Shown: in pieces, positions 526 through 26,806 of the stretch | Numbering within the stretch: position 1 is the stretch's first letter | How the letters are laid out: every line of letters begins with the position of its first letter | Assembly (NCBI RefSeq): GCF_000321005.1 | Contig: NZ_HE578907.1 | Coordinates: 1,108,059-1,172,058, forward strand | DNA length: 64,000 bases | Reading direction: 5' to 3' | From: Anaerococcus senegalensis JC48 | GTDB lineage: Bacteria > Bacillota > Clostridia > Tissierellales > Peptoniphilaceae | Notes under the pieces: model-generated | The model's database searches: none | What the model was told of the DNA's origin: nothing | The model's input: the letters and a program-made list of their open reading frames with translations, nothing else | Position numbers and translations under genes: made by a program

Positions 526-577
526 TAAAATAATTTGTTCTAAAACAAAAACTTTCTAAAATAATCTTTCAAAAAGA

Positions 578-3015: not shown

Positions 3016-3111
3016 ATTTGCTTTTCTTATTAATCTATCTTCCCTAGAATTAACTATATACAAAAATTAAATTAATATATATAAAAATTAAATTATCTCC
3101 TAGTCAAGTAT

Positions 3112-4218
3112 CTACAAAACTTCTTCAGCTACTTCTTTTATTAGGGCAATTTTTTTCCATTGATCTTCTTCTGTAATTTTATTTCCTTCTTCTGTTGAAG
3201 AGAAACCACATTGTGGGGAGATTGCTATTTGGTCCTTATCTAAATATTTTTTAGCCTCATTAATTCTAGCTATCAAATCTTCTTTTTTCTCTAAATCTGC
3301 CCTTTTACTTGTAACTAGGCCTAGGACAACTTTTTTTCCTTTTGGAACTTTTTTTAAGGCCTCAAATGATCCTGATCTTTTATCATCATATTCTAAGAAG
3401 AATCCATTTACATGCTCATCTTTTAGCAAATAATCTGCGATTTTATCATAACCACCCTTAAAGTGGAAGGCTGATTTATAATTTCCCCTACAAATATGGG
3501 TTAAAACATTTAATCCTTCTGGTGCCTTATCAATTGCCTCATTATTTATTGTCAAATACGTCTTCTTTAATTCTTCAACGTTTTTGCCGTCTTTTTCATA
3601 TTCTTCTATTGCATCATCATCAACCAAGGCTCCCCAAGTGCAATCATCAATTTGAACAGTTTCACAACCTAAATCATGAAGTTCTTTGAAAAATTCTCCA
3701 TAAGCCTTAGCCACATCTTTTATAAAATCATCTTCGTTTTCATAAACCCCGCCTTCTCCAATTTGATTATAAACTGTTCTTAATAATTGGGCAGGAGCAG
3801 GTATGGTTTGTTTTGCTTTTATGTCATTTTCTTCAAATTTTTGTACGTATTTAAAATGTTCTAAAAATGGGTGGTTTGTACCTAAAATTTTACCTACAAT
3901 TTTTACAGAGTCTGGCCTTAAAACTTCTCCATGAAATTTTATTCTCTTATCTTCTTCTAGGGTATATTTTTCTATTCCATTTAGGCCCCAAAAAAAGTCA
4001 TAGTGCCACCAGCTTCTTCTAAATTCACCGTCTGTTATAAATTTAAGACCAGCCTCTTTTTCCTTTTCAATTAACTTTTCAATTTCTTCATCTTCAATTT
4101 TTTTAAGGTCAATTTCCTTAATTACTCCCTTAGAAAAATCTTCTCTTGCTTTTTTTAATCTTTCTGGTCTTAAAAAAGATCCTACAATATCATATTTGTA
4201 TGGTGCTCTTACTGTCAT
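3112..4218 (-). CDS. MetE-like cobalamin-independent methionine synthase family protein (short form)
   Basis: The 368-residue protein corresponds to the catalytic C-terminal half of MetE, as in the YxjG/YxjH group, and lacks the N-terminal MetE domain. Zinc-ligand candidates are in order: His241 and Cys243 (LTHICRG), a Glu near 274 (FFLEYDD) and Cys337 (SPQCGFSS). It probably transfers a methyl group to homocysteine or a related thiol. The methyl donor of short forms is not settled. AAGGAG stands 7 bases before the ATG at 4216-4218; the longer open frame upstream is the T-box leader read as protein. The T-box upstream, probably methionyl-tRNA-sensing, supports a role in methionine supply. Confidence 0.85.
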   Translation of the reverse strand: MTVRAPYKYDIVGSFLRPERLKKAREDFSKGVIKEIDLKKIEDEEIEKLIEKEKEAGLKFITDGEFRRSWWHYDFFWGLNGIEKYTLEEDKRIKFHGEVLRPDSVKIVGKILGTNHPFLEHFKYVQKFEENDIKAKQTIPAPAQLLRTVYNQIGEGGVYENEDDFIKDVAKAYGEFFKELHDLGCETVQIDDCTWGALVDDDAIEEYEKDGKNVEELKKTYLTINNEAIDKAPEGLNVLTHICRGNYKSAFHFKGGYDKIADYLLKDEHVNGFFLEYDDKRSGSFEALKKVPKGKKVVLGLVTSKRADLEKKEDLIARINEAKKYLDKDQIAISPQCGFSSTEEGNKITEEDQWKKIALIKEVAEEVL

Positions 4219-5882: not shown

Positions 5883-7307
5883 TTATTCTAGTACTTTTTT
5901 AATTTTTTCCTTATCAGCGAGTTCTACTATTTCTTTTACTTTTTCTTCAGTATCAAATTCTGTAGCAATTTTTGATAAGATTTCTAAATGCTCGTCTCCT
6001 TTTCCAGCTATTCCTATCACTAAATATACTTTTTCATCATTCCAAGTAATTCCGTTTTTATTTACTATAACAACAAGTCCAGTATTTAAAATTTCTGACT
6101 TATAATCATAAGCTCCATGTGGAATTGCAAGACCGTTGCCCATATTTGTGTGGAATTCTGATTCTTTTTCTTTCATTCCATCTAAATATTTTTCTGTTGT
6201 ATAGCCACCTGATACAAATTTTTGGTTGATTTTTATGAGGGCGTCTTCTTTTGTTGTAATTGAATTATCAATTATAATATTATCATTTGGTAAAACTTCC
6301 AAGCTTGTTTTTAAATCTGATCTTTTTTCATTTAATAATTTTACTACATCATCAAATTCTTTTGGGTTTATATAGGATGATATTATAATTCTTGTTTTAT
6401 TTGGTGCTTTTTTCTTAGCAGCTTCTGCTAATTCTTTGTGAACAACTATAAGATCAGCATCATCAGGAATTGATTGGATTGATGTATGGATTACGTCAAT
6501 ATCAAAGCCTTCATTTTTTAATCTTTTCTTTAATGATGAAGCTGTCATTGCGCTTGATCCCATTCCAGCATCACAAGCTACTACGATTTTTTCAATTTCT
6601 TTTGAAGAAATTTCATTTCCAATATTTTCATTTAAATTTTCACTTGTTTCTTCTTCATCACCAGTATAATTTTTGTAATATCTTTTTACAAAGATACTTG
6701 CAACTAAGAAAGTTACTATTGTAGCTGATAATACTACAATTAACATAGCTAAATATTTTCCCTTAGGTGTCATAGCTATTACTGAAAATATTGATGCAGG
6801 TGATGGAGTATAAACTGTTCCGTAATGTAAAAGTTGCATTACAATAATATTTGTAGCTTGTCCTGCAATACAAGCAATTAATGTTAATGGGTTTGATAAA
6901 ACATATGGAAAATATATTTCATGAATTCCACCCAAAAATTGAATAATCATAGCACCAGGTGCTGCTTCTTTCATATTTCCTTTTCCAAATTTCCAATATG
7001 CAAGTAGTATTCCAAGACCAATTCCTGGATTTCCAATTATCATAAATAATGGTGAATATCCTACTTTTGCAACTTGAGTTAGGCCAAGAGGTGCCATTAT
7101 ACCGTGGTCGATTGCATTATTTAAGAATAATACCCTACCAGGTTCTATTAATAATGAAACAAGTGGTAAGAATCCTTTGTTCATTAAATATTCAATTCCC
7201 CCAGCCATTGCATTTGTAACTGATACTACGACAGGTTCTATAAATAAGAAAGATAGAACACAAATAATTCCACCAAGAATTCCAAGTGAGAAATTATCAA
7301 CTATCAT
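5883..7307 (-). CDS. mtlA: Mannitol-type PTS EIICBA, C-terminal part after a frameshift
   Basis: This frame holds most of the membrane EIIC domain (start to about residue 215), the EIIB domain with the phosphocysteine in VVACDAGMGSSA (Cys245) and the EIIA domain with the phospho-His in AIPHGAYD (His397). Together with the preceding 125-residue frame it makes a normal MtlA of about 605 residues. The two frames are joined without loss if one A is removed from the AAAA run (plus-strand tttt 7332-7335): the reading then continues [19 protein letters not shown]. The ATG at 7305-7307 lies inside the conserved EIIC sequence and has no ribosome binding site, so it is probably not a true start. The gene is either inactivated or carries a sequencing indel. 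Confidence 0.85.
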   Translation of the reverse strand: MIVDNFSLGILGGIICVLSFLFIEPVVVSVTNAMAGGIEYLMNKGFLPLVSLLIEPGRVLFLNNAIDHGIMAPLGLTQVAKVGYSPLFMIIGNPGIGLGILLAYWKFGKGNMKEAAPGAMIIQFLGGIHEIYFPYVLSNPLTLIACIAGQATNIIVMQLLHYGTVYTPSPASIFSVIAMTPKGKYLAMLIVVLSATIVTFLVASIFVKRYYKNYTGDEEETSENLNENIGNEISSKEIEKIVVACDAGMGSSAMTASSLKKRLKNEGFDIDVIHTSIQSIPDDADLIVVHKELAEAAKKKAPNKTRIIISSYINPKEFDDVVKLLNEKRSDLKTSLEVLPNDNIIIDNSITTKEDALIKINQKFVSGGYTTEKYLDGMKEKESEFHTNMGNGLAIPHGAYDYKSEILNTGLVVIVNKNGITWNDEKVYLVIGIAGKGDEHLEILSKIATEFDTEEKVKEIVELADKEKIKKVLE

Positions 7308-7326
7308 TTCAAAGCCATTAGGAACT

Positions 7327-7704
7327 TTATCTTTTAACTAAATCATCAAATTTTTTAATTACTAAACCTGAAAATGGACCAATAATCATTGCTCCCAAAA
7401 ACATTGGTATATCTGCTCCTACAACTATACCAAAAGTTCCTATAGCCCCTGCTACTGCTCCTCTTTTTCCATGTACAAGTCCACCACCACTATAACCAAT
7501 CAAAATTGGTAAAAGATAATTTAAAAGTGGTATAATAAGTTTTGCTATTTTTTTATTTGGTGCCCAACCTGACTCTATAAAGATTGCAGTAATAAGACCA
7601 AAAGCTATAAAAGCTCCTATATTTGGAATTACCATTCCACTTAGAAACGACCCAAACTTCTGGAATTTATCACGAGTATTATTAATATTTTTTTCCCTTG
7701 CCAT
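7327..7704 (-). CDS. mtlA: Mannitol-type PTS EIICBA, N-terminal fragment
   Basis: This is the first part of a mannitol-family [36 protein letters not shown] and [13 protein letters not shown] are typical. It stops after KKFDDLVKR at a TAA created by the one-base frameshift described for the C-terminal part. The start chosen is the ATG at 7702-7704 with AAAGGTGAAATT upstream; the TTG five codons earlier is less likely. It follows the DeoR-family gene by 18 bp in the same operon. Alone, the fragment (about three membrane segments) could not transport. Confidence 0.85.
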
Positions 7705-7722
7705 AATTTCACCTTTCAAATA

Positions 7723-12611: not shown

Positions 12612-15600
12612 TTACTTAGAACTAATTTCTAATTCCTTGTTTTTTCTTTTGTTATAATACCAAACACCAAGAATCATTAAAATTAATCCTAAAATTGTAA
12701 ATCCAAGCCATGGCCTAATTCCATTAGTTAATGGAAGAGTTAGTTTTTTATTTTCTATATTAATAGAATTATTACTAATATCTGCCATATTATCAAAATT
12801 AAAACTATGATCAATATGTTGATCTGTCCTTGTTCCTATATGGAAAGTTCTATCTTCTTTTTCTTTATCATTAATTACAAGGCTAGAATTAATATCTAAT
12901 ACTGTATCTTGATTTAGAAGTGAAGACATTTCAAAGACTATAGTTTTATTTGTAGTATCTTTCTTTTCTAGCTTGTTAACCAAATTATAAAGATCAATTT
13001 CTATTTTTCCTTTACCATTTGTATAATCACTATCTGTTAAAGTATAAGTTTCAGAATCAGTTTTCTTACCTTCAGAATCTACTAAATAAGCCTTAATTGA
13101 TATTGGTGTATTTGAATTTGATGATTCATTTGCATAAGCAAATCCTGATAGAATAAGTTTTGATTTATCCTTAATATAAGTTATATTTTCATGATTAGGA
13201 TTTATTTTCGTACTTATATCAGTCTTATACATTGGTTTTGAATTTGACCAAGTTTGTGTCTTTTTAACACTCATATCAGTCTTATATTTTTCTTCTTGAA
13301 TCTTTCCATCGATTGCTGCAAATTCTTTTACATAATCTTTTGGTCTTATATATCCACTAGGAGCTTTAATTTCCTTTAGGGCATAATATCCAGACTCGTA
13401 GAAGGTAAAGTCTACTATTCCGTCATCACCTGATGTAAAGCTTTTAACTTCATTAAATCCACTTGGAGCTTTTTCATCAGATTTTAGTACTAATCTTTCA
13501 ACTTTTCCATCTGTAGTTTTTTCATATAGTTTAAGAAGTTCATTTGAATACTCATCAGATTTATTTTTCTTGTAGTAAACATCAAATTTAGCATCTTTTA
13601 AAGTTTTCTTTGTGCTTGCATCAATTTTTTTGAAGCTAATATTTTGTTTCTTCTTATTTTCTATATAAATTGGAACAAGTCCTTCTTCTATTTCAGTATT
13701 TTCATCAGAATCAGTAGTTTTATTTGTAATTATCTTTCCATTACTATTTACTACAAACTCGTAGGCAGGATTTGTTAGAATCTTATAACCTTGTGGTGCG
13801 GATACTTCTTCTAACTTATAGAATCCTGGTTTTAGTTTAGTAAATTCAAACTTACCGTCTTCGCCACTTGTTAATTCTTCCTTAACATAAGACCATTCCT
13901 TGTCTGTAGATTTTGCTTTGTATTTTAGTTTAAACTTAGCATTTGCTAGAGCCTTACCATCTTGGTCTACCTTTTTGAACAAGATTTTGTTTTCTGGGTT
14001 GACTGCTTTAATTTCTGGCTTGACACTACCGCTTGCCTCATTTACAAAGTAATGAACTGAGTCATGTCTTTCAGCATAGGTTGGTGAATAATTTTGGTTA
14101 AATTTAAGGAGTGTTCCATGAGCTGTATATTCAGACTTATCCTTTTCAGCTACCCTTCCAGTTACTTTTATTATATAGGAGTGAGTATTGTAGATTCCAT
14201 TATTAAATTTAACACTTGTGTAATATCCTTTATTTAATCTTTGAAAAGATCTTACAGTATCAAATTGAGATAGGTTAGAACTATTTTCATTTACAGCAAA
14301 TGATTCTGGCATATCCTCTGCTACATTGGAATTATCATGTAAGTAGCTTACAGACATGTTGAAGTTTTCTATATCTCGGTCTGATACATATCTTAACTCA
14401 ACAGGTCCATCTGTATTTTCTTTTAGTCTATTAACATAATAGTAATGTAGGAATTCACCTGTTTCTGGATTGTATTTTACTATCTTTGAAACAAGATTGA
14501 TCCTATTTCCATATGCATCGATCTCGTGACCATAATCAAGATCATAGATTACTTTCATATCTCTTAATTGACTATTATCATTTCCAACGTAGAATCCAAC
14601 TTTTTGTTTACTTAAACCTTGATCTGTTTGTTTAACCTTATATAGGTCAATAAAGGAAGTTAGTTTGTTTGAAAATTCTACTAGATCGTAGGTTTTTGCA
14701 TAATCTGTGAATGTATAGGTTATAGTTCTCTTTTCTCTATCATAATCAGCTTTAGCTATAGTACCAATACCAGCTGCAATGATGTCTAAGTTTTCTACTT
14801 CATTTTCAGCTATACCATTTAGGTCTGTTACATCACTCATATTGAGTACGAAGTAATCCCCTGGGTTAATCTTTACGCTAGGATCAACTGCATATTTGTT
14901 GGTAAATTCCATACTTTCGCCCCAGTGTGGATGGATTTTATTTCTATCTTCACTGGTTTTATCTTCTGGATTTAGAACATTCATCTTTGTTGTATTTAAA
15001 GTAATCTTATCTGATAAATCTCTTCCATCTCTTGCGATAGGACCTGCATATGGATCTAAGCCTTCTCCACCTACTGTGAAGTTCCAAACTTGGTTAGTAT
15101 TTACATATCCATCTGGTGATTCAATTTCTTCTAGTCTGTAGTTACCAATTGGCAATTTATCGAAAAGAATAGTACCATCTTTGCCTACAGTTTTAGTTGT
15201 TATTGAACCATTTTTTGATAAGTTAGTTAATTTAAACTTAGCACCAGCTAAGAGATCACTTGCCTTAATTTCATTACCATTTTGATCGACCTTTTTAACT
15301 GTCATTTCACCTTCGCCTGGTTTTTCGTTTATGATTTTACCCATGTTCTTGGCTGTAGCACTAGTTACAAAGTCTATAAGTTTACCATCTTTTGCAGAAG
15401 TTTTGTCTTCTGGAACGTATTGGTATACGCCATTTGCATTGTCATATTCTAGGGATATATAACCACTAGATGCTGGGACAATTTTGATTTGCTTTACTGG
15501 ATATTCATTGTAGTATGAATTTCCTTCTTCATCAAATTGTTTCTCACCTACTACTATCATATCTTTTAGTAAAACTTCTTTTTTGGTATCAGGGTTAACT

Positions 15601-18600
15601 ATTTTACTTGTTTCTATATTTATATCTTTTGAATCTACATCCTTGATATCAAGATTCTTAGTAGAATCTTTTGGATCTACCATTTGAAGGTCAGATAGAT
15701 TATAAGTTTTTCCTTTACTTACAAATCTCACATTTATAGTTTTAATATCAACAGTATCACCTGTTTCAGGATCTACTACATCTCCTGAGTTTGTATTAAC
15801 AGTTTTAATTGTGAAATAAAGTAGTGGATCTGTGATTGGCTTATATCCTTCTGGTGCTTTGACTTCCATTAGTCTATAACGACCTGGCTCCAAGTTTCTA
15901 AAACCAAAGTATCCGTTAAAGGCTGAACCAACATATGAACCATCTACATCTACATAGGTGTTGGCGATTTCTTTTTGAAGTTTGAATATTGCACCTTCAA
16001 GTCTGTTTGTTGTTACATTTTCACTATCAACTTTATCGTTTAGATTGTCACGACCGTGTTTAGAAAATGTTACATTATATCTTTCTTCTTCATTTATTAC
16101 ACTCATTCCATCTTGTGGAACTTCTGTATAGTTTTTAGATGAATAAAGTGTATGAAGATCAATACTTGTTGAAACTCTAGTTCTGTCTTCTTCATTTAAT
16201 GGAGGATAAATACGTCCACCAGTTTTACCTAATTGACCAGTTGGAGATTTTTCAAATTTAGTTAAACCAAGGGCTATGTTACCAGCTTGGTAAGAGCCTT
16301 TTTCAACTTTTTTAAATATTATTTTTCCTTGATTATCTCTACCAACTGCTTGTTGGAATTCTCTCGCTCCATCGTAGAAGTCAAAATTGAGTTCAAGTTT
16401 TTGCAAATCATCTGGATTTGTAATAGTTTCTTTTCCACTTTGATGATTATCTTTTCCAGTAAGAATAGCATCATCGTAGAAACCTTCAACGTCAATATAA
16501 TATACTTCGCCCTTATCTAGGTTCATTATATCTTCATCAAATCCCCAATCATATGGTCTCCATCTTGCAGTATTAAGCATTGTTACATCATTTTTAGATA
16601 AGTCATAATTGTTTAATACTGTATCAGCAAAGCTGTCATCATTTGGAGCACCTGTTATCTTGTAGGTTGATCTGTAGGCAGTTTTTACACCTTCTACATC
16701 TATATTAGGTTCTTTTCCTGGCCCATTGTCTGTTTCTTCTCTTTTATATTTTGGATTAATTTGAATATTAATCTTATTACTTTCTCCTCTATATCCTCTT
16801 GTATCAATGTATATTCTTTGAATATAAGTTTTAGACTGAGTATTTATATAAGTTATTTTAGACTTATACTTAATACCATTATCTGCAGTTTTTATACTTT
16901 CTCTATCATAAGACTTATTATCTTTTAGATAATCATATGAAGTATGTTCTGCTGATTTATATTTTGCTTTTAGCTGTCCAGCATTTTCATATACTTCTAT
17001 ATCAAAAGGAGCTTGTGGCTTTTTGTATCCTGATGGTGACTTAGTTTCTGTTAATCTATAGAAACCAACAGGTAAACTTACAGGATTATCATCCTTATCT
17101 TTTAGTGTAACATTACCATTTTGATCTGATACACCGAAAAGTTTTTCGAAAGCAGAGTCCTTAGTTGTATAGTTTCCATCAGTGTATTTTTCTAATTCAA
17201 ACTCTGCCTTTTCAAGTCTTCTATCATAATTGTCTCTTTTTATAATCTTAAGAGCAAGACCTGTTTGTTTGTTGGTGATTATAGCAGTATTATCTATTAG
17301 TTCTTCTCCATCAGCTTTTGATCCATGACGTTCAATTCTGTCAGTTTTTTCTTTAATAGTTCTTACCAATTTGATATTGTAAGCTGCTATTCTTTCACCT
17401 TCTTGTTTTGCTGGAATTTCTAAATCATCTGGCCAGTTTTCAGGTTTAATTGCATCAGCTTTATTTTTTCTATCGAAAGTTACAGAATATTGATATTTCG
17501 CCTCGCCATTTTGACCTTCTGAATCAACTTTGATTTCACCTTGGGCTAAGTTCGGATCATCTTTTACAATCGTTTCAAATGGTATCTCTATAGTTTTATT
17601 TACTGGATCACTCGTTCTTGATTCTGGTCTTTTCTTTGTACCATGGTGGTACTCATCAGCTATAGCCTCTGGATTAGCTCTGGTATTTCCAGTAGCTGTT
17701 TTATTTCCAGATCTTATACCATCAGCTAATTCGTATTTATATTCTTTGTAAAGTTTTCCAGTAGAGCCTGCTACTGTCCAAGTTTCATCTTCATATCTGT
17801 CTGGTTCTGGAACACTAATAGTTTGTGGCTTTGGTATTTCACTATCATATTCCCAAACTGTTTCGTAAGTTACAACTGGACCTTTATTAATAGCTGATTC
17901 ATTAGTGTATGAGTTAGCTAGCCATGATTTACTACTATGAGTCGCAGCAGTATTTGACTTATAGTTTGTTCCAAGACCTACACCATATTTTTCATCATAC
18001 TGTGTTTCAATTTCTACTCTAATTGTTCCATTATATTTGGAAGGTATTGTAGCTACTAATCTTTTTTTACCATTTACAGTTTTTTCACTGAAAGTTATTT
18101 TTGATGTTATATCAGTGAGACTTCCTGGATTGTCAACATTATAGTTTGAAGCTTGATATACTTTGATAACTGAATTAGCTTTTGTTACATTAAAGTTTTC
18201 AGGTTGACTATGGATTTGGATTTCACGGTTTTTTGCACCATAAGGACTTTGTCCGTAGACAAAGACTTGTCTTAGTCTATTATCAACTTTATTAATTTCA
18301 GTAATCTTGGTTAAGACTGGAGCTGTATTATCATCAGCATGATTTGATCTAACATCTAATTTTCCTGATCTAGTTGGATCTATTTTTTCCCAATCGCTTA
18401 CTGCTTTTTTAGTATTTTCCATAAGCTCGCTTGGATTAATCTCTGAAATTTCAAGTTCATCATTTTTATCTCTAGAATCTTTTGCTATTTTTACAAATAG
18501 ATATGACCTCTTGTCTATAAATCCTTTATTTGAAATTCTATTATCTGATAGTACTCTAGCAAAATCACCTCGTAGAAGAGAAGATTCTCCAATATCAACC

Positions 18601-21600
18601 ATATTTGATTTGATATAAGATTTTCCATCTTGGGTTATAGTTACAGTCCATATTTCATCGGTCTTTTGATAGCCTGGTGCAGGTTCGCTTTCTTCTAACT
18701 TATATTTACCTGGTTTTAGACCGTTAAATGAAATCATTCCGTCAGATCCTGTTGTCATATATCTTTCATTTGGACTATCGTCTGGACTAGTTAGTTTAAA
18801 TGTTGCACCTTGGATTGGTGTAGTTTTATCAATTTCTCTTACCTTTTTAATCTTGAATCCATAAGTTTTAGGCTCGTTAGTAACATTAAGTGATCCTTCT
18901 GCTACGTAAGAACCTATTATAGATCCTTCTTCTCTTCTTGTTGGATCGCTTTCTACAATATCAGATACTCTTTCATAGTAGTCAGATTTCCAGTAAGTTT
19001 GTCCACCTTCAAACCAATCCATTCCAGTACCTACTCCACCATCTAAAGTTTTGTAAGGTATTTTGACATCTATTACTATTGGTTTATTGCTAGCTGGTAG
19101 ATCTAGTTTTAACCTTCTTTCTCCATAATGAGAATCATCTACTGATTTTCTTACAGATGAAGTTATATCTGTTTCCTTAAAATCCGCAAGTCTTAAATCA
19201 GAGATAAATCCAGTTACTTTTCCACTAGTGTTGCCACCTTCTTTGGGTTCAAGAGTAAATACTTTTACTTCTTCATTGTTATACCAATCCATATTTGGAT
19301 ATTCTGGTTTTTCTCTATGAATTATTGCTTCTGATTGACCGATTTGTCTTGCTTCTGGATTTATTACATATCTTTGGATAACATAATTATTTTCTTTATT
19401 GATAGCTACGATTCTTGTACCCATATATCTTGCGTCAATTGAATTTGCAGCCCAGCCTGTAAGTCTATTATCATAGCTCGACCATCCTGTTGTTGGTCTT
19501 TCTTTTACATTAACCCAATGAGTACCATCTTCACCAAGGATTGATTTTATATCACTAGTATCTGATTTTGAATAGGTATAGATTTTGGTTTTACCATCTT
19601 CTATTCTTAGTACCCATTTTTTATTAAGTGAATTATATCCTGCTGGTGGCTCTACTTCTTCAAGGACGTAATTTTTGCCCTCTTGTGGAGTTCCATTAAA
19701 GTCTACAATACCATTTTGATCTGATGTTGCATATATTGGTAAGTTTTGATCTTTACCTTCTGGATCAGATATCTTAAATTTCGCTCCAGCAAGTGGTTTT
19801 CCATAGCCGTCTTTTTTGTATACTCTAAATTTTTGTCCTGCTGGTTTGTTCGTTACTGGAATATTTATAGTATCTTTTCCAGTGTATTCTTCACCTCCAC
19901 CTATGATTGAAGCTGAAGTTATTTTTACATTTCCATCACTATATACTGTAACATTCCATCCTTTAGTAGACTTAATATATCTTTCTGGTGCCCTATATTC
20001 TTTTAGGATGTATTTCCCAGGAGCAAGATTATCAAAGCTAATCTCACCGTTTTGATTCGATGTTCTGTAGATTTTTTTATTATCAGAATCTGTTAGGACA
20101 AAGGTTGCTCCTTTAAGTTTTTCATTTTGATTTGCTTCATTTAGCTTAGTTATCTTGAAACTTGCGGGTTGGTATTTTTTATTTATGATACCAACTACTT
20201 CTTTAGCAAATGAGGGTAGTTGTTCACCTGTTTGGTCTGCCTTAGAATAGTTTTTATTAGGGCCTGTTACAAAGGATGAATTTAAAGATTTTGCCCTATT
20301 TCCGTTTTCATCACCATTTGCCATGTAGAAGGCTCTCCAGTGAGTGTTAAACTCGTCTATATCTCTAATCCTAAATGTTTGTTCTATTAAATAAGCATCT
20401 TTTATAGGATTTATCTTAGGTACGGATATAGTTAGAGGAGGATTTTTTGTATCATATAATTCTCCCGTGCTTATTACCTTATTTGGATCATAAGTTAAAT
20501 TAAATCCACCTTGTGATATATTGTAAGCTTTTGTATGATCAATTTCTGCATGATATACAAGACTATAAATATCTGGATTTTGTTCAGGTCTTACACCCAT
20601 TGACAATGGCATATAGTCATTTACTTGAGGGTAATAATCACGGTGAGCCTCGTATTTTTTAAGTGGTGGAATAGTTGTTTCATAAATCTTGACATCATCC
20701 AAGTAGTATGGAGGATCGTATTGACCTTGCCAAGTTTCTTGCTTTACACCTTGGTAGTTTGCAAATTTCCAGTTAAACCAAATCTTGTTGGCATTACCTG
20801 TCTTGTAATCACCAAGTGGGTTGTAGTATCCAATAGCTTTTACATACCAATTTCCATCGTCTGCCTTGTAAACATCTCTAAAGTAATAAGCTTGACTTGG
20901 GAATTTCCCTGCTGTGGTATGTGTGTCATAACCACCGTAGTCTGCATGAACTGTTAGATTTTGTACTTGATTACCTTCAATTTTTCCTGATTGGTTAGGA
21001 GCTACTGTATTAGTAAATTTCCAATCTCCAGAATGAGTTGCATAGAATTTAGATGGTATCATTCCCTTAAGATCTAGACTAAATCTTGTTTCACCATTAC
21101 TTAGTGAGTTTTCATTAAAGACATAAGTTAATAGGTTAGTCTTATAATTAAAGTATGGCTCTGCTATCATTTTCCCATTGAAATATAAGTTTGGGAAAGT
21201 CTTAAAGTATTGGGTAAAGTCTAGGTTAGGGTCAAATTGGATTTCAAATCTAGATTCTGGAGCTGCATTACTTATGGTAGCATCTAAGTGATATTTTAGA
21301 GATTCTAGTCTGTATGCTTCCCATACTCCTCTAAAGTTACCTAATCCTTCATCATCATTTATAACCATGCTTTGATTTACACGAGTTACTATGGCAGTAT
21401 CTTCTGTTTGACCACCTTCTTCTCTTTCTATATAATAGTCAACTCCTGCTTTTGGTGAACCAGATGAGTCTTTAAACTTAGCATCGTAAGATACTTGTCC
21501 GTCTTCACTTACAGTTACTCTGAAGTATACGTTAGATTTTTCATAACCTTCTGGAGCTTTCACTTCTTCTAGGTAGTAGGTTCCTGTTGGATATTTTCCA

Positions 21601-24600
21601 AAGCTTAACTTTCCATCTTCACCAGTGATTTTGTTTGCAATTATTTCTCCATTTTCATTTTTAAGGACAAATTCTGCTCCACCTAATCTATCTTTCTTGC
21701 CATCAGTAGAAGTGCCTGCAAATTTTGCCACTTCTATTTCACTTTTTGGAAGCTCTTCATTAGAAATTGTTATTGTTGGATGTCCATTTTCCTCAGAATT
21801 TTTGCTTAAATTTACATTTGCTCTAATTTTGGATTGACCCGCTGGGGCTTCTTTTGCAAGCCAATCATAAGATAAAACTGTACTATCTTTATCTCCAATA
21901 TTGGCATTTACTTCCACTAAGAAACCCCATTTGTCACCAAATCTTCTTTGAGGGAATGTTATTTGATAAGAATTATTTCCTGATAGAGGATTTTTTGTAT
22001 TTGCATTTCCTTCAATTGCTCCATTATTGTTTGGAGCTCCTGGAGTAATTTTACCTAGGCTAGATAGTTTTTGATCAACGTTTTGATTATTCATAGAGGC
22101 AAAAATATCTGGTCTTTTGTTAGGACTTACATCATATACCTTAATATTTGAATCTTGTAAATTTACTCCTGGTATAAAGATATTAAATGTTGTATCCTTG
22201 TCAGTTCTTCCGCCCACTCTTTGGTCGTATGGTTTTAGATATACATAAAATTTTAAATTTCCATTTTCATCAACTTTTCCGTAATGTTGAGTGTTCATAA
22301 AGTCTTTCCAGTTTGGAAAGTCAGAGTGTTCTAATATATCTGTTTTACCAGAACCAGAAGAAAATTGAGCGTTTTTACCTGATATAGATACTTTTCCATC
22401 ATCTGAAATTGTGATAGTCTTATCTTCTTGATCAAGCTTATATCCTGCTGGTGCTTTTGTTTCTTTTAAAGTATATGTGCCTGGTTTAACATTATTAAAT
22501 GTAGCTTCACCATTAGAATCTGTTGTAATTAAAATTTCTGCACCTAGTAGGTAGAAGTTTGCTCCTGGAATTCTTTTTTCAGGATTATTTGCATCTACTT
22601 TTATTACAGTAAATGTTGCAGGTATTTTGTCATTTTTTTCTATCAAGTCATTTACAATTTGGTGAGATTTTGAATCTATATCATAGTAGTTAGCATTTTC
22701 TTTAAATGTATATTTTTTATCACCTACTGAAATAATTTCAGTTGGTAGAACTTGATCTACCTTGTGGTCGATCATAGAAGCTTTGCCGTCACTTCCTATA
22801 TTCCAAAATCTTACATTTGGTATATTTATTACTCTTTGATGACCTTCTTCTTCTTTAAGTTCAATTTTTCCTAATTCTTTTTTATCATTATCTATAATAG
22901 TTAGATTTTGAGCTGGCATTTTATCATAGTCTTCTGCTAATGACCAGTGTTGGTCAACTATTATGTCTTTATATTTTGAAATTGTAACTCCACCAACACT
23001 GTAATCAGTTGGGTCATTTGGTGTATTTAACTTTGTATCAAACTTATATACTCCAATATTTCCTACTGCTTGTGTGCCATTTGGATTAGTTTCTTTTTCT
23101 GGTACATTTGAGATGTTAGTTTCAGGATTTTTAACTTCCATCTTTCCAGTTTCTTTGTTTATACCATAAACTGCTCTTTTGCCAGTAGCTAATGTTTGGT
23201 TTTCCAGACTTCTTGTTTCTAGTGGAAGACCATTATTAGTATCTCCTGTAGACACCGCATCTGTTATTGTCCACTCTGCCTTATCTTCTTTTTTGAATTC
23301 TCCTTTTATAGTAGTTCTGTTATTCATACTAGTACGGTTAGGAGAATTTTGTTCGATTTTTTCTTGTGGGTATCCTTCTTTTAATATATGTCTTAGGGCA
23401 CCAACTTTATTATTTTTAGCTGTAAGGATAGTTGATACATCTATCATATATGAAGCTTGTTTATTTGTTACTGGAGTATTGAAAGTATAAACAAGAGTTT
23501 TGACATTTTCATTTAGATCGTGGTGTTTAGAGTCTGATATTCCTAATTTTCCACCTAATTGATCTGTTAGGTCAACAGATTTTCCATTTATTTTAACATT
23601 TTGGATTTCGCCAAGACCAGAGCCTTCTACTGTAGTTAGGTTTAGTTTGTAGCCTAATTCTTTTAGGTCTACTGTAGAGTCGACTCTTAGTGTCCAGTTG
23701 ATTCCTGCCATACCCAAGCCTTCAACTACAGGGTTTCCTACAATATCCATATTTACCTTGTAGTCCTCGTCATCTTCGCCAATTATTTGAACTACATCAT
23801 CTCTACCTTCTTCTATTATAGTTCCTGCTGGATTTCCGTTTTTGTCTATTTTTTCTGCAGGTAGAGTTTTTGGATTTGTAACTCCTAGACCAGATATGCT
23901 ATTTACTATAGTAAAGCTTTTATCTGCTGGAATGTTTGCTGTGTTATAATCAACATCTATATTTAGTAGCTTATTTATATCTTCATCTATATCGCTTACT
24001 ATTTGATATTTAATGGTATTTGTAGCTTGATCATAGCTAGGTCTTGCTATAACATTTCCATTGTAGATAATATCTTCTAGGCTAGATGGGTCTTTTACAG
24101 TTAATTTTTTATCTAGGTGAATATTAAAATATTGGTCAGCCTTGATTGGACCAAGTCTGTTTGATGTATCAAAACGAGTCCTAATTGTGAATTTTTTATT
24201 TTCTAAATTTGATTCACTTTCATTATTTTGTGCTGCCTTAACTTTTTCTTTTGATGGTTCATCTTGACCCAAAAACAACATTCTAAGTTTTGGCATCAAG
24301 CCACTTTTTTCTGCCTTTTTCTTTTCATTTTTATCTTCACTTTTTTCTTCTACTTGATTATTTTTGGAAGATTTTTCATTTTCATCTTTATTTTCTTCTT
24401 TTTTTGTTGTTTGTGTAGAATCTTTTTTGTCTGTAAGATTTTCTTTTTCATCTTTACTTTTGCTATTTTCAATTGATTTTTCATTTGATTCTACTGTTAC
24501 TTCAGTTTTACTTTCTTTATTTTCTTCTTTTTTATTTTGTGAAGAGTCTTCTTTATTTGAAGATGATTTTTCATCTTGTTTCTTTTCTTCAGTGATAGAA

Positions 24601-25487
24601 GAAATTGAAGTATTTTTATCTAGTTCTGTTTTTATTGGTTGATCTTGTTGAGATTTTTCTTTCTCAGCTTCTTCTTTTTGAATTTTTTCTTCTTGTTTTT
24701 TATTTTCTTCTTGTTTTTTATTTTCTTCTTCTATTAAGTTATTTAAATTTTCAAAATCTTCTTTTAAAGATTTTGTAGTATATAAAGTTTTATTTTCGTC
24801 TCTAATTAAGGCAAAAATATCCCCTTCATTTTTTATAGTCAAATTTCCTTCTTGGTCTTTTTCATAAAGGTTGAAGTTTGGATCTAGGGATTCATATTGA
24901 AGAAATTCTAGATTGAAAACTAACTTGTCTTCATTAAATATTTTTTGATTTCCTTTTTCATTAAAGTCAAAATCATCCATTATTTCAAAGTCTATGTATG
25001 AATAGTTTTCTCCATAAGGATTTTCTTTTTCTGTGTCTTTATTTTCTAGTTGTTCATTTGTTAGTAATTTAAAGCCATTTTCATCTTCGATTATTTCTAA
25101 ATCAAGATCAAGTCCTTGGTCATTTAGCATATCTTTAACACGCCAATATTCCCTACTAGCCTGTTCGTTTGAATCAAAATATCCGTCATCATACAATTTT
25201 AAATCAATTCTTTTTACTAATCTAAAATTTGAAGTAGTATCTGGCATTGTTACAGCTACAGAAAATTTATCCTCATCTTTTTTGATATTTTTTTTATAAT
25301 AAATTTGCTGTGCTTTTGTGATTGAAAGATTCACATTATAACCATCTTTCATCTGTTCAATTGATTTTATGGTATTTAGATTATCTTCTTGAGCTTTGGA
25401 TGTCGTCTTAAAAGCTGGAAGCATTACTTGAAGTACCATAAATAAAGCCATCAAAAATGACGTCATTTTTCTTGATAATGTTTTCAT
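12612..25487 (-). CDS. Giant LPXTG-type surface adhesin with about ten SpaA/CnaB domains
   Basis: This 4291-residue protein fills a fifth of the window. In order it has: a signal peptide (1-32); a unique N-terminal region to about 240; an E/K/S-rich unstructured stretch (about 242-416); then SpaA/CnaB isopeptide domains mixed with MSCRAMM-like beta domains. The CnaB E-boxes lie near residues 1005, 1305, 1829, 1942, 2265, 2814, 3207, 3455, 3892 and 4037 (e.g. YTLKETKAPAGY, YYLEEVKAPEGY). Between them are N2-like (GDYFVLNMSD, ITYTFTDYA) and N3-like (YVINP..., IKVY) folds. The end has LPLTNG at 4251-4256, a membrane segment and a positive tail. It is probably a wall-anchored adhesin whose domains carry Lys-Asn isopeptide bonds. 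The ligand is unknown and no sortase is in the window. AAAGGAGCTCAT precedes the ATG. Confidence 0.93.
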   Translation of the reverse strand: MKTLSRKMTSFLMALFMVLQVMLPAFKTTSKAQEDNLNTIKSIEQMKDGYNVNLSITKAQQIYYKKNIKKDEDKFSVAVTMPDTTSNFRLVKRIDLKLYDDGYFDSNEQASREYWRVKDMLNDQGLDLDLEIIEDENGFKLLTNEQLENKDTEKENPYGENYSYIDFEIMDDFDFNEKGNQKIFNEDKLVFNLEFLQYESLDPNFNLYEKDQEGNLTIKNEGDIFALIRDENKTLYTTKSLKEDFENLNNLIEEENKKQEENKKQEEKIQKEEAEKEKSQQDQPIKTELDKNTSISSITEEKKQDEKSSSNKEDSSQNKKEENKESKTEVTVESNEKSIENSKSKDEKENLTDKKDSTQTTKKEENKDENEKSSKNNQVEEKSEDKNEKKKAEKSGLMPKLRMLFLGQDEPSKEKVKAAQNNESESNLENKKFTIRTRFDTSNRLGPIKADQYFNIHLDKKLTVKDPSSLEDIIYNGNVIARPSYDQATNTIKYQIVSDIDEDINKLLNIDVDYNTANIPADKSFTIVNSISGLGVTNPKTLPAEKIDKNGNPAGTIIEEGRDDVVQIIGEDDEDYKVNMDIVGNPVVEGLGMAGINWTLRVDSTVDLKELGYKLNLTTVEGSGLGEIQNVKINGKSVDLTDQLGGKLGISDSKHHDLNENVKTLVYTFNTPVTNKQASYMIDVSTILTAKNNKVGALRHILKEGYPQEKIEQNSPNRTSMNNRTTIKGEFKKEDKAEWTITDAVSTGDTNNGLPLETRSLENQTLATGKRAVYGINKETGKMEVKNPETNISNVPEKETNPNGTQAVGNIGVYKFDTKLNTPNDPTDYSVGGVTISKYKDIIVDQHWSLAEDYDKMPAQNLTIIDNDKKELGKIELKEEEGHQRVINIPNVRFWNIGSDGKASMIDHKVDQVLPTEIISVGDKKYTFKENANYYDIDSKSHQIVNDLIEKNDKIPATFTVIKVDANNPEKRIPGANFYLLGAEILITTDSNGEATFNNVKPGTYTLKETKAPAGYKLDQEDKTITISDDGKVSISGKNAQFSSGSGKTDILEHSDFPNWKDFMNTQHYGKVDENGNLKFYVYLKPYDQRVGGRTDKDTTFNIFIPGVNLQDSNIKVYDVSPNKRPDIFASMNNQNVDQKLSSLGKITPGAPNNNGAIEGNANTKNPLSGNNSYQITFPQRRFGDKWGFLVEVNANIGDKDSTVLSYDWLAKEAPAGQSKIRANVNLSKNSEENGHPTITISNEELPKSEIEVAKFAGTSTDGKKDRLGGAEFVLKNENGEIIANKITGEDGKLSFGKYPTGTYYLEEVKAPEGYEKSNVYFRVTVSEDGQVSYDAKFKDSSGSPKAGVDYYIEREEGGQTEDTAIVTRVNQSMVINDDEGLGNFRGVWEAYRLESLKYHLDATISNAAPESRFEIQFDPNLDFTQYFKTFPNLYFNGKMIAEPYFNYKTNLLTYVFNENSLSNGETRFSLDLKGMIPSKFYATHSGDWKFTNTVAPNQSGKIEGNQVQNLTVHADYGGYDTHTTAGKFPSQAYYFRDVYKADDGNWYVKAIGYYNPLGDYKTGNANKIWFNWKFANYQGVKQETWQGQYDPPYYLDDVKIYETTIPPLKKYEAHRDYYPQVNDYMPLSMGVRPEQNPDIYSLVYHAEIDHTKAYNISQGGFNLTYDPNKVISTGELYDTKNPPLTISVPKINPIKDAYLIEQTFRIRDIDEFNTHWRAFYMANGDENGNRAKSLNSSFVTGPNKNYSKADQTGEQLPSFAKEVVGIINKKYQPASFKITKLNEANQNEKLKGATFVLTDSDNKKIYRTSNQNGEISFDNLAPGKYILKEYRAPERYIKSTKGWNVTVYSDGNVKITSASIIGGGEEYTGKDTINIPVTNKPAGQKFRVYKKDGYGKPLAGAKFKISDPEGKDQNLPIYATSDQNGIVDFNGTPQEGKNYVLEEVEPPAGYNSLNKKWVLRIEDGKTKIYTYSKSDTSDIKSILGEDGTHWVNVKERPTTGWSSYDNRLTGWAANSIDARYMGTRIVAINKENNYVIQRYVINPEARQIGQSEAIIHREKPEYPNMDWYNNEEVKVFTLEPKEGGNTSGKVTGFISDLRLADFKETDITSSVRKSVDDSHYGERRLKLDLPASNKPIVIDVKIPYKTLDGGVGTGMDWFEGGQTYWKSDYYERVSDIVESDPTRREEGSIIGSYVAEGSLNVTNEPKTYGFKIKKVREIDKTTPIQGATFKLTSPDDSPNERYMTTGSDGMISFNGLKPGKYKLEESEPAPGYQKTDEIWTVTITQDGKSYIKSNMVDIGESSLLRGDFARVLSDNRISNKGFIDKRSYLFVKIAKDSRDKNDELEISEINPSELMENTKKAVSDWEKIDPTRSGKLDVRSNHADDNTAPVLTKITEINKVDNRLRQVFVYGQSPYGAKNREIQIHSQPENFNVTKANSVIKVYQASNYNVDNPGSLTDITSKITFSEKTVNGKKRLVATIPSKYNGTIRVEIETQYDEKYGVGLGTNYKSNTAATHSSKSWLANSYTNESAINKGPVVTYETVWEYDSEIPKPQTISVPEPDRYEDETWTVAGSTGKLYKEYKYELADGIRSGNKTATGNTRANPEAIADEYHHGTKKRPESRTSDPVNKTIEIPFETIVKDDPNLAQGEIKVDSEGQNGEAKYQYSVTFDRKNKADAIKPENWPDDLEIPAKQEGERIAAYNIKLVRTIKEKTDRIERHGSKADGEELIDNTAIITNKQTGLALKIIKRDNYDRRLEKAEFELEKYTDGNYTTKDSAFEKLFGVSDQNGNVTLKDKDDNPVSLPVGFYRLTETKSPSGYKKPQAPFDIEVYENAGQLKAKYKSAEHTSYDYLKDNKSYDRESIKTADNGIKYKSKITYINTQSKTYIQRIYIDTRGYRGESNKINIQINPKYKREETDNGPGKEPNIDVEGVKTAYRSTYKITGAPNDDSFADTVLNNYDLSKNDVTMLNTARWRPYDWGFDEDIMNLDKGEVYYIDVEGFYDDAILTGKDNHQSGKETITNPDDLQKLELNFDFYDGAREFQQAVGRDNQGKIIFKKVEKGSYQAGNIALGLTKFEKSPTGQLGKTGGRIYPPLNEEDRTRVSTSIDLHTLYSSKNYTEVPQDGMSVINEEERYNVTFSKHGRDNLNDKVDSENVTTNRLEGAIFKLQKEIANTYVDVDGSYVGSAFNGYFGFRNLEPGRYRLMEVKAPEGYKPITDPLLYFTIKTVNTNSGDVVDPETGDTVDIKTINVRFVSKGKTYNLSDLQMVDPKDSTKNLDIKDVDSKDINIETSKIVNPDTKKEVLLKDMIVVGEKQFDEEGNSYYNEYPVKQIKIVPASSGYISLEYDNANGVYQYVPEDKTSAKDGKLIDFVTSATAKNMGKIINEKPGEGEMTVKKVDQNGNEIKASDLLAGAKFKLTNLSKNGSITTKTVGKDGTILFDKLPIGNYRLEEIESPDGYVNTNQVWNFTVGGEGLDPYAGPIARDGRDLSDKITLNTTKMNVLNPEDKTSEDRNKIHPHWGESMEFTNKYAVDPSVKINPGDYFVLNMSDVTDLNGIAENEVENLDIIAAGIGTIAKADYDREKRTITYTFTDYAKTYDLVEFSNKLTSFIDLYKVKQTDQGLSKQKVGFYVGNDNSQLRDMKVIYDLDYGHEIDAYGNRINLVSKIVKYNPETGEFLHYYYVNRLKENTDGPVELRYVSDRDIENFNMSVSYLHDNSNVAEDMPESFAVNENSSNLSQFDTVRSFQRLNKGYYTSVKFNNGIYNTHSYIIKVTGRVAEKDKSEYTAHGTLLKFNQNYSPTYAERHDSVHYFVNEASGSVKPEIKAVNPENKILFKKVDQDGKALANAKFKLKYKAKSTDKEWSYVKEELTSGEDGKFEFTKLKPGFYKLEEVSAPQGYKILTNPAYEFVVNSNGKIITNKTTDSDENTEIEEGLVPIYIENKKKQNISFKKIDASTKKTLKDAKFDVYYKKNKSDEYSNELLKLYEKTTDGKVERLVLKSDEKAPSGFNEVKSFTSGDDGIVDFTFYESGYYALKEIKAPSGYIRPKDYVKEFAAIDGKIQEEKYKTDMSVKKTQTWSNSKPMYKTDISTKINPNHENITYIKDKSKLILSGFAYANESSNSNTPISIKAYLVDSEGKKTDSETYTLTDSDYTNGKGKIEIDLYNLVNKLEKKDTTNKTIVFEMSSLLNQDTVLDINSSLVINDKEKEDRTFHIGTRTDQHIDHSFNFDNMADISNNSINIENKKLTLPLTNGIRPWLGFTILGLILMILGVWYYNKRKNKELEISSK

Positions 25488-25855: not shown

Positions 25856-26806
25856 TTATTTATTAAATTGGTCTAGAACCCATAAATAAGATTCTTCTGT
25901 AATTTTGTTCCAATAATCCCAATTATGTTCAAATTCTTTTCCATCTTTTTTAAATTCAGTATTTATTTCAGCTTGTTCAAGTTTCTTGTTGAAATTTTCG
26001 ATATCAGAAATTTTTATTGTTGTATCTCCCTCGCTAGATCTTATATAAAAATTCATATCTTTTGTATTCTCATTTATAAAATTTGCAGGGAATTTTTCTT
26101 TATATACTTGGTCTGACCAAATTTCTTTTCCATCAGAAAAAGCCCTGTAATTTCTTCTAATTAAGCTATCTTTATCAAGTTTTTCCCAAAGCGTTGGTGA
26201 TATTAAAAGTGCTTTTGAAAATAAGTCAGGATTTCTAAGACTAAGACTTGCTGCTCCATATCCTCCTACAGAAAACCCACCTACTGCCCTATTATCTTTG
26301 TCAGATTTTGTCTTATATTTATTGTCAATTTCATTTATAAGTTCATCTTTGATTGCGCTTTCCATTTTTTTATCATAATCACTATCTACATAAAATGAAG
26401 AAAATCCATCTACAAAAACTACAATCATCTTTTCTTTTTTATCTTTCATTATTTTATCAAGTACATTTTTTGTATTTGATTTTTCGAGTATTAATGAAGA
26501 GTTTTCTCCCATTCCATGAAGCATATATAATACTGGGTATTTTTCTTTGCCTTTTTCCTTATATCCATTTGGTAGATAAACCTTATATTTCCAATTTTGT
26601 TTTAAAATTTCAGAATTAATTGATCCATCTAAAATTCTCCCCTGATCTTTTTTGTCAATATTTGATTTTTTCTCATTTGAAATATTTTCACTTGAAGAGA
26701 AGCTTTTCGAATCTATATTTTGTTTTTTTTCATTTTTATTAGAACAAGACGAAAAAATTAAAGCTAAAGCTAAAAAAGTTCCTATCAATTTTTTATTCTT
26801 TTTCAT
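25856..26806 (-). CDS. Secreted esterase lipoprotein (esterase D/PF00756-type)
   Basis: The 316-residue protein has a lipoprotein signal (lipobox FSSC near residue 21), a Lys/Ser-rich linker and an alpha/beta-hydrolase fold. The nucleophile Ser is in GGFSVGGYGA, an oxyanion-type LHGMGEN block lies upstream, and the Asp of RSSEGDTT and His of EFEHNWDYW complete the triad. It is probably a cell-surface carboxylesterase of the esterase D/antigen 85/feruloyl-esterase group; the substrate is unknown. It is divergent from the C69 dipeptidase gene. AGGTGAT precedes the ATG. Confidence 0.85.
   Translation of the reverse strand: MKKNKKLIGTFLALALIFSSCSNKNEKKQNIDSKSFSSSENISNEKKSNIDKKDQGRILDGSINSEILKQNWKYKVYLPNGYKEKGKEKYPVLYMLHGMGENSSLILEKSNTKNVLDKIMKDKKEKMIVVFVDGFSSFYVDSDYDKKMESAIKDELINEIDNKYKTKSDKDNRAVGGFSVGGYGAASLSLRNPDLFSKALLISPTLWEKLDKDSLIRRNYRAFSDGKEIWSDQVYKEKFPANFINENTKDMNFYIRSSEGDTTIKISDIENFNKKLEQAEINTEFKKDGKEFEHNWDYWNKITEESYLWVLDQFNK

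What the first reader, a model, noticed from the sequence alone, without database searches (positions are those of the whole stretch)
12612..25487. Giant surface protein with CnaB domains interspersed among repeated MSCRAMM-like adhesin units
MSCRAMM proteins normally have one N-terminal ligand-binding A region followed by stalk repeats. Here N2/N3-like folds seem to occur several times, interleaved with about ten SpaA/CnaB domains along 4291 residues. Such a chain could bind several ligands or the same ligand many times along one covalently stiffened fibre. The E-boxes (E-x-K-A-P-x-G-Y type) were read directly; the N2/N3 assignment rests on motif likeness (GDYF.L..SD, ITYTFTDY, YVINP, IKVY).
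Basis: partly seen in the sequence, partly recalled or inferred. Interest (0 to 1): 0.75.

Follow-up and report, generated by a model that had tools for sequence, protein, structure and literature searches.

The report
Giant bacterial adhesin with exchangeable body
A giant surface protein of an Anaerococcus bacterium carries several adhesin-like modules that are probably built into, rather than strung between, its covalently locked stalk domains, and its whole middle part appears to be traded between distantly related bacteria while each lineage keeps its own ends.

Summary
ORF 12612-25487 (-) encodes a 4291-residue, Cys-free protein with ten CnaB domains, one clear MSCRAMM N2-N3 pair (aa 3486-3825; clumping factor A, E 1.4e-8), a divergent second pair (aa 1345-1767), an extra N2 (aa 430-560) and two lone N3-like modules (aa 1973-2198, about 2350-2535). 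Two additions. (1) The modules are probably inserts, not beads. In eight of ten CnaB domains the conserved candidate bond Asn lies beyond the module, just before the next CnaB or the anchor, so the module would sit between the host's penultimate and last strands, off the load path. This rests on sequence; structure prediction could not test it. (2) Signal peptide plus head follow the species tree (nearest neighbour in own clade 16 of 16); the 17 body segments compared do not (1-5 of 16-17). The window's body is 74-98% identical per segment to A. vaginimassiliensis (dS 0.31-0.40 against 1.46 for ileS), its ends belong to the A. vaginalis clade. Similar bodies occur in three genera with RpoA 51-58% identical. 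The family hits 44 of 249 genomes of the order, all in one family. New variant of known kinds; ligand unknown.

The parts
12612..25487 (-). Whole ORF, 4291 aa, with stop codon
25392..25487 (-). Signal peptide region, aa 1-32 (lineage-specific)
   Evidence: sequence
24723..25391 (-). Head S0, aa 33-255; follows the species tree; no Pfam family over cut-off
24201..24722 (-). Lys/Glu/Ser-rich linker, aa 256-429
   Evidence: sequence
23808..24200 (-). S1a, aa 430-560, N2-type (Big_8) domain; Big_8 in 16 of 16 members
22632..23807 (-). S1b, aa 561-952, beta-rich, fold not identified
22362..22616 (-). CnaB1, aa 958-1042 (K963, E1009; candidate bond Asn N1243)
21777..22361 (-). S2, aa 1043-1237, probable guest of CnaB1, fold not identified
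21456..21740 (-). CnaB2, aa 1250-1344 (K1255, E1308; candidate N1769)
20199..21455 (-). S3, aa 1345-1763, divergent N2-N3 pair, probable guest of CnaB2
19836..20174 (-). CnaB3, aa 1772-1884, contiguous (K1781, E1830, N1880)
19572..19835 (-). CnaB4, aa 1885-1972 (K1891, E1944; candidate N2204, alternative N2007)
18894..19571 (-). S4, aa 1973-2198, lone N3-like module, probable guest of CnaB4
18594..18869 (-). CnaB5, aa 2207-2298 (K2215, E2266; candidate N2739)
17289..18593 (-). S5, aa 2299-2733, hypervariable segment: N3-like part (aa about 2350-2535), then G5 domain (aa 2629-2671); probable guest of CnaB5
16953..17264 (-). CnaB6, aa 2742-2845 (K2750, E2814; candidate N3132)
16110..16952 (-). 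S6, aa 2846-3126, weak N3 likeness only; probable guest of CnaB6
15768..16079 (-). CnaB7, aa 3137-3240 (K3143, E3208; candidate N3387)
15348..15767 (-). S7, aa 3241-3380, unidentified; probable guest of CnaB7
15048..15314 (-). CnaB8, aa 3392-3480 (K3399, E3454; candidate N3830)
14013..15032 (-). S8, aa 3486-3825, canonical N2-N3 pair (Big_8 then SdrG_C_C) with trench-like motif TYTFTDY; probable guest of CnaB8
13647..13988 (-). CnaB9, aa 3834-3947, contiguous (K3839, E3894, N3944)
13323..13646 (-). CnaB10, aa 3948-4055 (K3954, E4039; candidate N4246, alternative N4096)
12768..13322 (-). S9, aa 4056-4240, unidentified; probable guest of CnaB10
12615..12767 (-). aa 4241-4291: candidate last strand of CnaB10 (N4246), sorting signal LPLTNG, membrane span, positive tail

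Best explanation
It is a cell-wall-anchored fibrillar adhesin of Anaerococcus, one member of a family spread over the same bacterial family (Peptoniphilaceae in NCBI). Ten CnaB domains form a stalk that is probably locked by Lys-Asn isopeptide bonds. Eight modules (S2 to S9), including two N2-N3 pairs and two N3-like modules, are probably inserted as guests between the penultimate and last strand of eight of these CnaB domains; each host's bond would close over its guest, so pulling force runs along the CnaB chain while the modules hang sideways and stay free to open and close. The pair at aa 3486-3825 is the best candidate for a dock-lock-latch ligand site; its ligand is unknown. The gene behaves as a chassis with an exchangeable body: signal peptide plus head (and, more loosely, the anchor) stay with the lineage, while the body (aa about 430-4050) moves by recombination between species and genera as one of several divergent types. 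Shown: domain content, conserved residues, mosaic gene, conflict of head and ileS with body. Inferred: insertion topology, bond formation, ligand binding, fit of the ends to the cell's own export and sortase machinery, and immune or niche selection as the driver.
For: Ten CnaB, N2 and N3 domains (S3-S8 profile match over 248 columns, probability 95.4, and S4-S5 98.0). First-strand Lys and E-box Glu conserved in 10 of 10 CnaB in all rows (17 of 17 or 16 of 16). Asn 9-12 residues before the next CnaB's Lys at 9 of 9 CnaB-CnaB junctions: 8 pass 90% conservation in the global alignment, N1243 does in the local one; 4.2% of positions have such an Asn 9-13 upstream. A closing-strand matrix trained on the two contiguous CnaB (3 and 9) ranks the proposed site first in 5 and second in 3 of 8 guest regions of 135-417 scored positions. 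Exchange. Second giant locus shows the same pattern in part.
Against: No coordinates were available and no model tested the insertion: the model of aa 568-1767 (pLDDT 71.8, pTM 0.41) has a strand at aa 1238-1243, as expected, but stops before N1769; the model of aa 1975-3155 is poor (52.7) and shows no strand at N2739, N2204 or N3132. Other conserved Asn lie nearer behind CnaB1 (N1065, 17 of 17), CnaB4 (N2007, 15 of 17), CnaB10 (N4096, 16 of 16) and CnaB5 (N2295, 14 of 17). The single-sequence version of the matrix test was weaker (ranks 5-236 of 4279 for the eight sites), and without the Asn column the family version gives ranks 4, 20, 1, 3, 9, 20, 9, 1. The anchor keeps to the own clade in only 10 of 16 and S9 in 6 of 16, and in the cross-genus trio S9 travels with the body. 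No binding data.
Confidence: 0.68

Rival explanations
1. Beads on a string: complete CnaB domains alternate with MSCRAMM-like and other beta domains; the conserved Asn before each next CnaB belongs to the last strand of the preceding bead.
For: Alternative conserved Asn behind CnaB1, 4, 5 and 10; neither model shows the closed host.
Against: No conserved Asn (80% or more) was listed directly behind CnaB2, 6, 7 and 8 short of the proposed one, apart from those inside the CnaB7 guest (N3352, N3381); the spacing to the next Lys equals that in the two contiguous CnaB; matrix ranks 1-2 in 8 of 8 guests.
Confidence: 0.27
2. The N2/N3-like domains are structural stalk units that lost ligand binding; binding, if any, is by the head or by other modules.
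For: The trench-like motif is kept only in S8, not in S1 or S3; S4 and S5 have an N3 without an N2. dN/dS in N2/N3 segments (0.09-0.32) is no higher than in CnaB segments (0.09-0.35) in the one pair tested. An adhesive pair near the anchor is unusual (PMC8286594, section 9 and passages).
Against: S8 keeps N2-N3 order, a match over both domains to ClfA, and Y-[TVI]-F-T in 16 of 16 rows that cover the motif.
Confidence: 0.25
3. The body types are ancient paralogues kept or lost at random, so that the trees disagree without transfer between species.
For: Two paralogous giant loci exist in several genomes, so duplication and loss do happen.
Against: Body dS is far below ileS dS in all six distant pairs tested (0.33-0.76 against 1.22-1.66); ancient paralogues would be at least as diverged as the species. 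The head in the same gene tells the opposite story.
Confidence: 0.04
4. Assembly chimera or contamination in the window genome.
For: Mosaic joins inside one gene; three relatives have broken frames (L013, L014, L056).
Against: The same pattern occurs in many separately assembled genomes; the window genome has 0.66% contamination and the gene lies inside a 1.37-Mb contig.
Confidence: 0.02

Closest known systems
Staphylococcal MSCRAMMs (ClfA, SdrD, SdrE, SdrG)
   Same: S8 has the N2-N3 pair in the same order, with sequence match over both domains, and a C-terminal sorting signal.
   Different: The canonical pair is near the anchor, not N-terminal; further N2/N3-like domains recur along the chain and are probably inserted in CnaB hosts; 4291 residues. 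Sdr proteins carry CnaB (B) repeats after the A region (recalled; PMC3775735 seen as listing and abstract start only).
Isopeptide-domain insertions in pilus-tip adhesins (RrgA, Spy0125)
   Same: A large domain inserted between bond-contributing residues of a CnaA-like (RrgA) or CnaB-like (Spy0125) domain (PMC12617251, passages).
   Different: There one or few inserts; here probably eight in a row in one chain, including MSCRAMM-like pairs.
Giant cross-linked adhesin of Mobiluncus mulieris
   Same: Giant Gram-positive adhesin with many cross-linked Ig-like domains (PMC10619420, abstract and outline only).
   Different: [quoted passage not shown] here no Cys, CnaB hosts with diverse modules.
Mosaic adhesin genes of Staphylococcus aureus (fnbpA)
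   Same: Domain variants shared by unrelated lineages through recombination (PMC2905362, abstract and passages).
   Different: There within one species and domain by domain; here about 11 kb of body between species and genera, with ends that tend to stay with the lineage.

Membership tests
MSCRAMM (N2-N3, dock-lock-latch type) | N2-type domain followed by N3-type domain | tested here: met
   S8: PF17961 2.3e-19 then PF10425 9.2e-11; ClfA 1n67 E 1.4e-8
MSCRAMM (N2-N3, dock-lock-latch type) | Latch-trench motif in N2 (recalled as TYTFTDYVD) | tested here: met
   S8: Y[TVI]FT in 16 of 16 covering rows, exact TYTFTDY in 4; not in S1 or S3
MSCRAMM (N2-N3, dock-lock-latch type) | Ligand-binding A region at the N-terminus, before the stalk | tested here: not met
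   Canonical pair at aa 3486-3825 of 4291, after eight of ten CnaB domains
MSCRAMM (N2-N3, dock-lock-latch type) | Ligand bound by dock, lock and latch | not testable with these tools
   no binding data
CnaB isopeptide domain | Lys in first strand and Glu of the E-box | tested here: met
   10 of 10 domains, conserved in all rows
CnaB isopeptide domain | Bond Asn/Asp in the last strand of the same domain | tested here: inconclusive
   Clear in CnaB3 and CnaB9; in the other eight only beyond the inserted module
CnaB isopeptide domain | Bond actually formed | not testable with these tools
   needs mass spectrometry or structure
Fibrillar adhesin (PMC8286594) | Known adhesive domain plus stalk domains in one chain | tested here: met
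   PF17961:PF10425 with ten PF17802
Sortase-anchored surface protein | LPXTG-type signal, hydrophobic span, positive tail | tested here: inconclusive
   LPLTNG, Gram_pos_anchor 19.5 bits against cut-off 20; four sortases in the genome
Major pilin (SpaH/EbpB, NF033902) | Match over the curated cut-off | tested here: not met
   64.6 bits against 95; nearest sortase match on the contig about 124 kb away

The most novel reading that the evidence does not exclude
Peptoniphilaceae share a family-wide pool of giant adhesin bodies that pass between genera as nearly whole, about 11-kb units, while each lineage keeps its own signal peptide, head and anchor. The bodies are built so that MSCRAMM-like modules sit as side-loops inside isopeptide-closed CnaB hosts: a fibre whose load path bypasses its binding modules, so modules and whole bodies can be swapped without weakening the stalk.
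Probability: 0.55. Interest if true: 0.82.

Novelty: new variant of a known kind. Interest (0 to 1): 0.72.

Why it matters
If the topology holds, it shows how a fibrillar adhesin can carry binding modules along its whole length without making them weak links: they are left out of the covalent load path. If the exchange holds, a common but little-studied family of anaerobes has an allotype system for one of its largest surface proteins that crosses genus lines, which suggests strong diversifying pressure and a split of labour between a transferable body and lineage-bound ends. Both are directly testable. PMC8286594 (section 9 and passages) reports that adhesive domains in Firmicutes lie mostly at the N-terminus, so a canonical pair near the anchor is an exception. 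My ten searches of the held library listed no paper that, by title, start of abstract or the passages I opened, describes this protein family or its exchange; only the listed top rows were seen, and most subscription journals are not held.

Tried and rejected
Rejected: 'all segments between CnaB domains are N2-N3'. S2, S7 and S9 gave no MSCRAMM family and no profile link over 30%, S6 only weak links (56 and 67; no Pfam family in 16 members). Profile searches of S1, S2, S3, S4 and S6 against PDB sequences gave nothing credible (best E 0.07). Rejected: thioester adhesin, as the protein has no Cys. Rejected: major pilin (membership test). Not supported: positive selection on N2/N3 in the window/A. 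vaginimassiliensis pair.

Led nowhere: the model of aa 1975-3155 is poor; fold comparison never ran.

Choice of rows: type-A trees use 16-17 rows, ileS 17. L065 lacks most of S8 onward; L058 has a stretch of unknown residues at the N-terminus; G003 is missing from the head set, though its head groups with the own clade. One search leaves out the linker, S5 and S7. The pairs were picked by me (six distant, five close). One search used 20 of the 23 matching genomes of other genera (the three left out had the weakest matches in those genera) and 16 of the 21 matching Anaerococcus. Insertion sites were proposed after seeing the conserved Asn, so the p-values are optimistic. Chance expectation of nearest neighbours in own clade, by my arithmetic from clade sizes: 4.25 of 17, and 3.7 of 16 without G003. 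In the AU tests the groups come from ileS but were tested after I had seen the trees.

Full report
1. What was checked. The ORF at 12612-25487 (minus strand) is open for 4291 codons. The genome (G000, window at C1:1108059-1172058) is an Anaerococcus: its IleS is 95-97% identical to six genomes (G001, G003, G007, G008, G013, G046), 88% to G023 and 73-78% to the other 23 Anaerococcus genomes searched. The product has no cysteine and a calculated mass of 486 kDa, starts with a signal-peptide-like stretch and ends in LPLTNG, a hydrophobic span and a positive tail.

2. Domain content. Ten PF17802 matches lie in the frame. The segments around them are called S0 (head) to S9. S8 (aa 3486-3825) is a true N2-N3 pair: PF17961 at 2.3e-19 followed by PF10425 at 9.2e-11; phmmer aligns it over both domains with clumping factor A (1n67, 1.4e-8) and with SdrD and SdrE. 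S1 has PF17961 in 16 of 16 members. S3 matches PF17961 in 11 of 16 members, not in the window's copy, and its profile aligns with S8 over 248 columns (probability 95.4). S4 matches PF10425 in 9 of 16, not in the window's copy. S5 contains a region that aligns with S4 (98.0; PF10425 itself in 1 of 16); in the window it ends with a G5 domain, found in 4 of 16, while 13 of 16 members have InlB B-repeats. S6 has only weak links (to S4 56, to S8 67); S0, S2, S7 and S9 have none over 30. Of 45 segment pairs compared, 6 scored over 30. PF05737 did not appear.

3. Where the bond residues are. In each of the ten CnaB domains the first-strand Lys and the E-box Glu are conserved in all rows (17 of 17, or 16 of 16 for CnaB9 and 10). 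The third residue should be an Asn in the last strand. In the two CnaB domains directly followed by another (CnaB3, CnaB9) this is N1880 and N3944, 11 and 10 residues before the next domain's Lys. At the other seven CnaB-CnaB junctions an Asn lies 9-12 residues before the next Lys (N1243, N1769, N2204, N2739, N3132, N3387, N3830), and N4246 lies directly before LPLTNG. Eight of the nine junction Asn pass 90% in the global alignment; N1243 does so in the local alignment of S2. 4.2% of positions have such an Asn 9-13 residues upstream. A matrix of the closing strand, trained only on CnaB3 and CnaB9 and averaged over the family, ranks the proposed site first in the guests of CnaB2, 4, 5, 8 and 10 and second in those of CnaB1, 6 and 7, out of 135-417 scored positions. 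Fisher's combination gives 2.6e-11, or 1.7e-7 from the ranks without the Asn column (4, 20, 1, 3, 9, 20, 9, 1). These values are optimistic: sites were proposed from the Asn pattern. The single-sequence version was weaker (ranks 5-236 of 4279).

4. What this means. The simplest reading is that S2 to S9 are guests between the penultimate and last strand of CnaB1, 2, 4, 5, 6, 7, 8 and 10. In CnaB folds the bond joins adjacent first and last strands, and both CnaA and CnaB folds tolerate domain insertions, with RrgA and Spy0125 as examples (PMC12617251, passages). A bond there would close over the guest and carry tension past it. Against this: no coordinates; a model of aa 568-1767 with pLDDT 71.8 that has the expected strand at aa 1238-1243 but proves nothing; a poor model of aa 1975-3155 without strands at N2204, N2739 or N3132; and alternative conserved Asn behind CnaB1, 4, 5 and 10.

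5. The mosaic. Aligned by codons to the A. vaginimassiliensis homologue (L010), the window gene is 73-97% identical in nucleotides per 50-codon bin over aa 451-2300 and 2751-4050, but 41-46% over aa 1-250, 39-49% over aa 2301-2700 and 43-50% over aa 4101-4250, with intermediate bins between. In residues the body segments are 74-98% identical. Yet ileS of these two species has dS 1.46 and RpoA is 75% identical. Body dS is 0.31 and 0.40, near the ileS level inside the window's own clade (0.28-0.30, five species). The head is 62-72% identical to six own-clade members. S9 is 44-48% identical to four of them and 42% to G015 from another clade, but 29% to A. vaginalis. The second part of S5 is 63% identical to A. 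vaginalis. So at least two, probably three, sources meet in one gene.

6. It is general. With clades taken from ileS, the nearest neighbour of signal peptide plus head is in the own clade in 16 of 16 rows; for the 17 body segments compared it is 1-5 of 16 or 17 rows, about the chance value of 4.25 of 17; for S9 6 of 16, for the anchor 10 of 16 (linker, S5 and S7 not included). AU tests reject the own clade as a group for two body blocks (p 1.8e-63, 5.3e-53), and reject window plus A. vaginimassiliensis for ileS (1.3e-6) and for the head (5.4e-4) (quick trees, one simple model, groups not fixed in advance). Close pairs such as G006-G018 (ileS dS 0.18, heads 89%) have bodies 50-56% identical, whereas six distant pairs (ileS dS 1.22-1.66) have bodies 72-90% identical at dS 0.33-0.76, with heads 22-33% in the five pairs where heads were compared. 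A second paralogous giant locus shows it in part: A. hydrogenalis and G010 share 80-93% in seven of eight windows between positions 500 and 4500 (34% in the eighth), while heads of G006/G018 (88%) and A. vaginalis/A. ihuae (73%) stay with the lineage. Heads of the two loci group by lineage more than by locus.

7. Across genera. The S3 profile hits 44 of 249 genomes of the order at E 1e-5, all in the window's family (Peptoniphilaceae by NCBI), in 9 of 92 genera. Of 36 S3 sequences compared (16 Anaerococcus, 20 others) 21 have their nearest neighbour in another genus, many of these only 48-61% identical; strong cases are G083-G142 (93%, dS 0.25), G126-G149 (91%, 0.38), G018-G083 (89%, 0.47) and G152-G141 (84%, 0.77). 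RpoA identity for these genera is 51% (G083-G142), 66% (G126-G149) and 77% (G152-G141). The first case was opened: G083, G142 and Anaerococcus G018 share 70-96% in every body segment except S5 (28-66%), S9 included, with heads 7-23% and anchors 36-51%, although RpoA is 51% between G083 and G142 and 58% and 53% to Anaerococcus (A. vaginimassiliensis used as stand-in for G018). G018 and its sister G006 have heads 91%, anchors 100%, bodies 38-71%, S5 27% and S9 47%. In the window pair S9 stays with the lineage (28%), in the trio it travels with the body, so the C-terminal boundary varies.

8. Function. Inferred: S8 is the best candidate for a ligand site, since among S1, S3 and S8 it alone keeps the trench-like motif (motif recalled). 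The ends may stay because they must fit the lineage's own export and sortase machinery. Within a body type selection is purifying (dN/dS 0.21 and 0.25), so diversifying selection, if any, acts between types.

9. Verdict. Observation confirmed; interpretation partly supported. The more surprising results are the probable insertion topology and the exchange of bodies between species and genera.

Noticed in passing
12615-12767 and C-termini of L009, L011-L014, L056: The sorting signal in the window's clade reads LP[LFMR]T[NRHS]G instead of LPXTG, in 7 of 7 members seen; outside the clade most giant frames end in YPxTGG or LPxTG-like signals.
   Followed up: partly
L051, L052, L057, L060, L061, L062, L064, L067, L069, L070, L074, L010: A second, paralogous type of giant adhesin (about 4000-5000 aa, under 26% identical to the window protein in the body) in many relatives; heads shared by lineage. 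No second giant frame appeared among the window genome's SpaA or Big_8 matches.
   Followed up: partly
L013, L014, L056: The giant gene is broken into two open frames in A. hydrogenalis, A. vaginalis and G003, at different places; intact copies exist in L009, L011 and L012. Assembly error or real breaks not distinguished.
   Followed up: no
L054 (G000:C1:1250000-1260500): A separate cluster of SpaA-type frames with three sortase matches, likely a pilus locus.
   Followed up: no
25856-26806: Putative lipoprotein esterase directly upstream of the giant gene; a similar frame lies upstream of it in L009, L011 and L014.
   Followed up: no
51855-55028: IleS scores 960.8 bits to the general ileS model and 925.5 to the MupA model, far below the latter's cut-off of 1900; a housekeeping gene used here as species marker.
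   Followed up: no
5883-7719: Mannitol PTS frame that begins at position 129 of the full-length model, with a 130-aa frame upstream; possibly split.
   Followed up: no
L053 (G000:C1:1075794-1076081): A third Big_8 domain of this genome in a 601-aa frame, a separate smaller putative adhesin.
   Followed up: no
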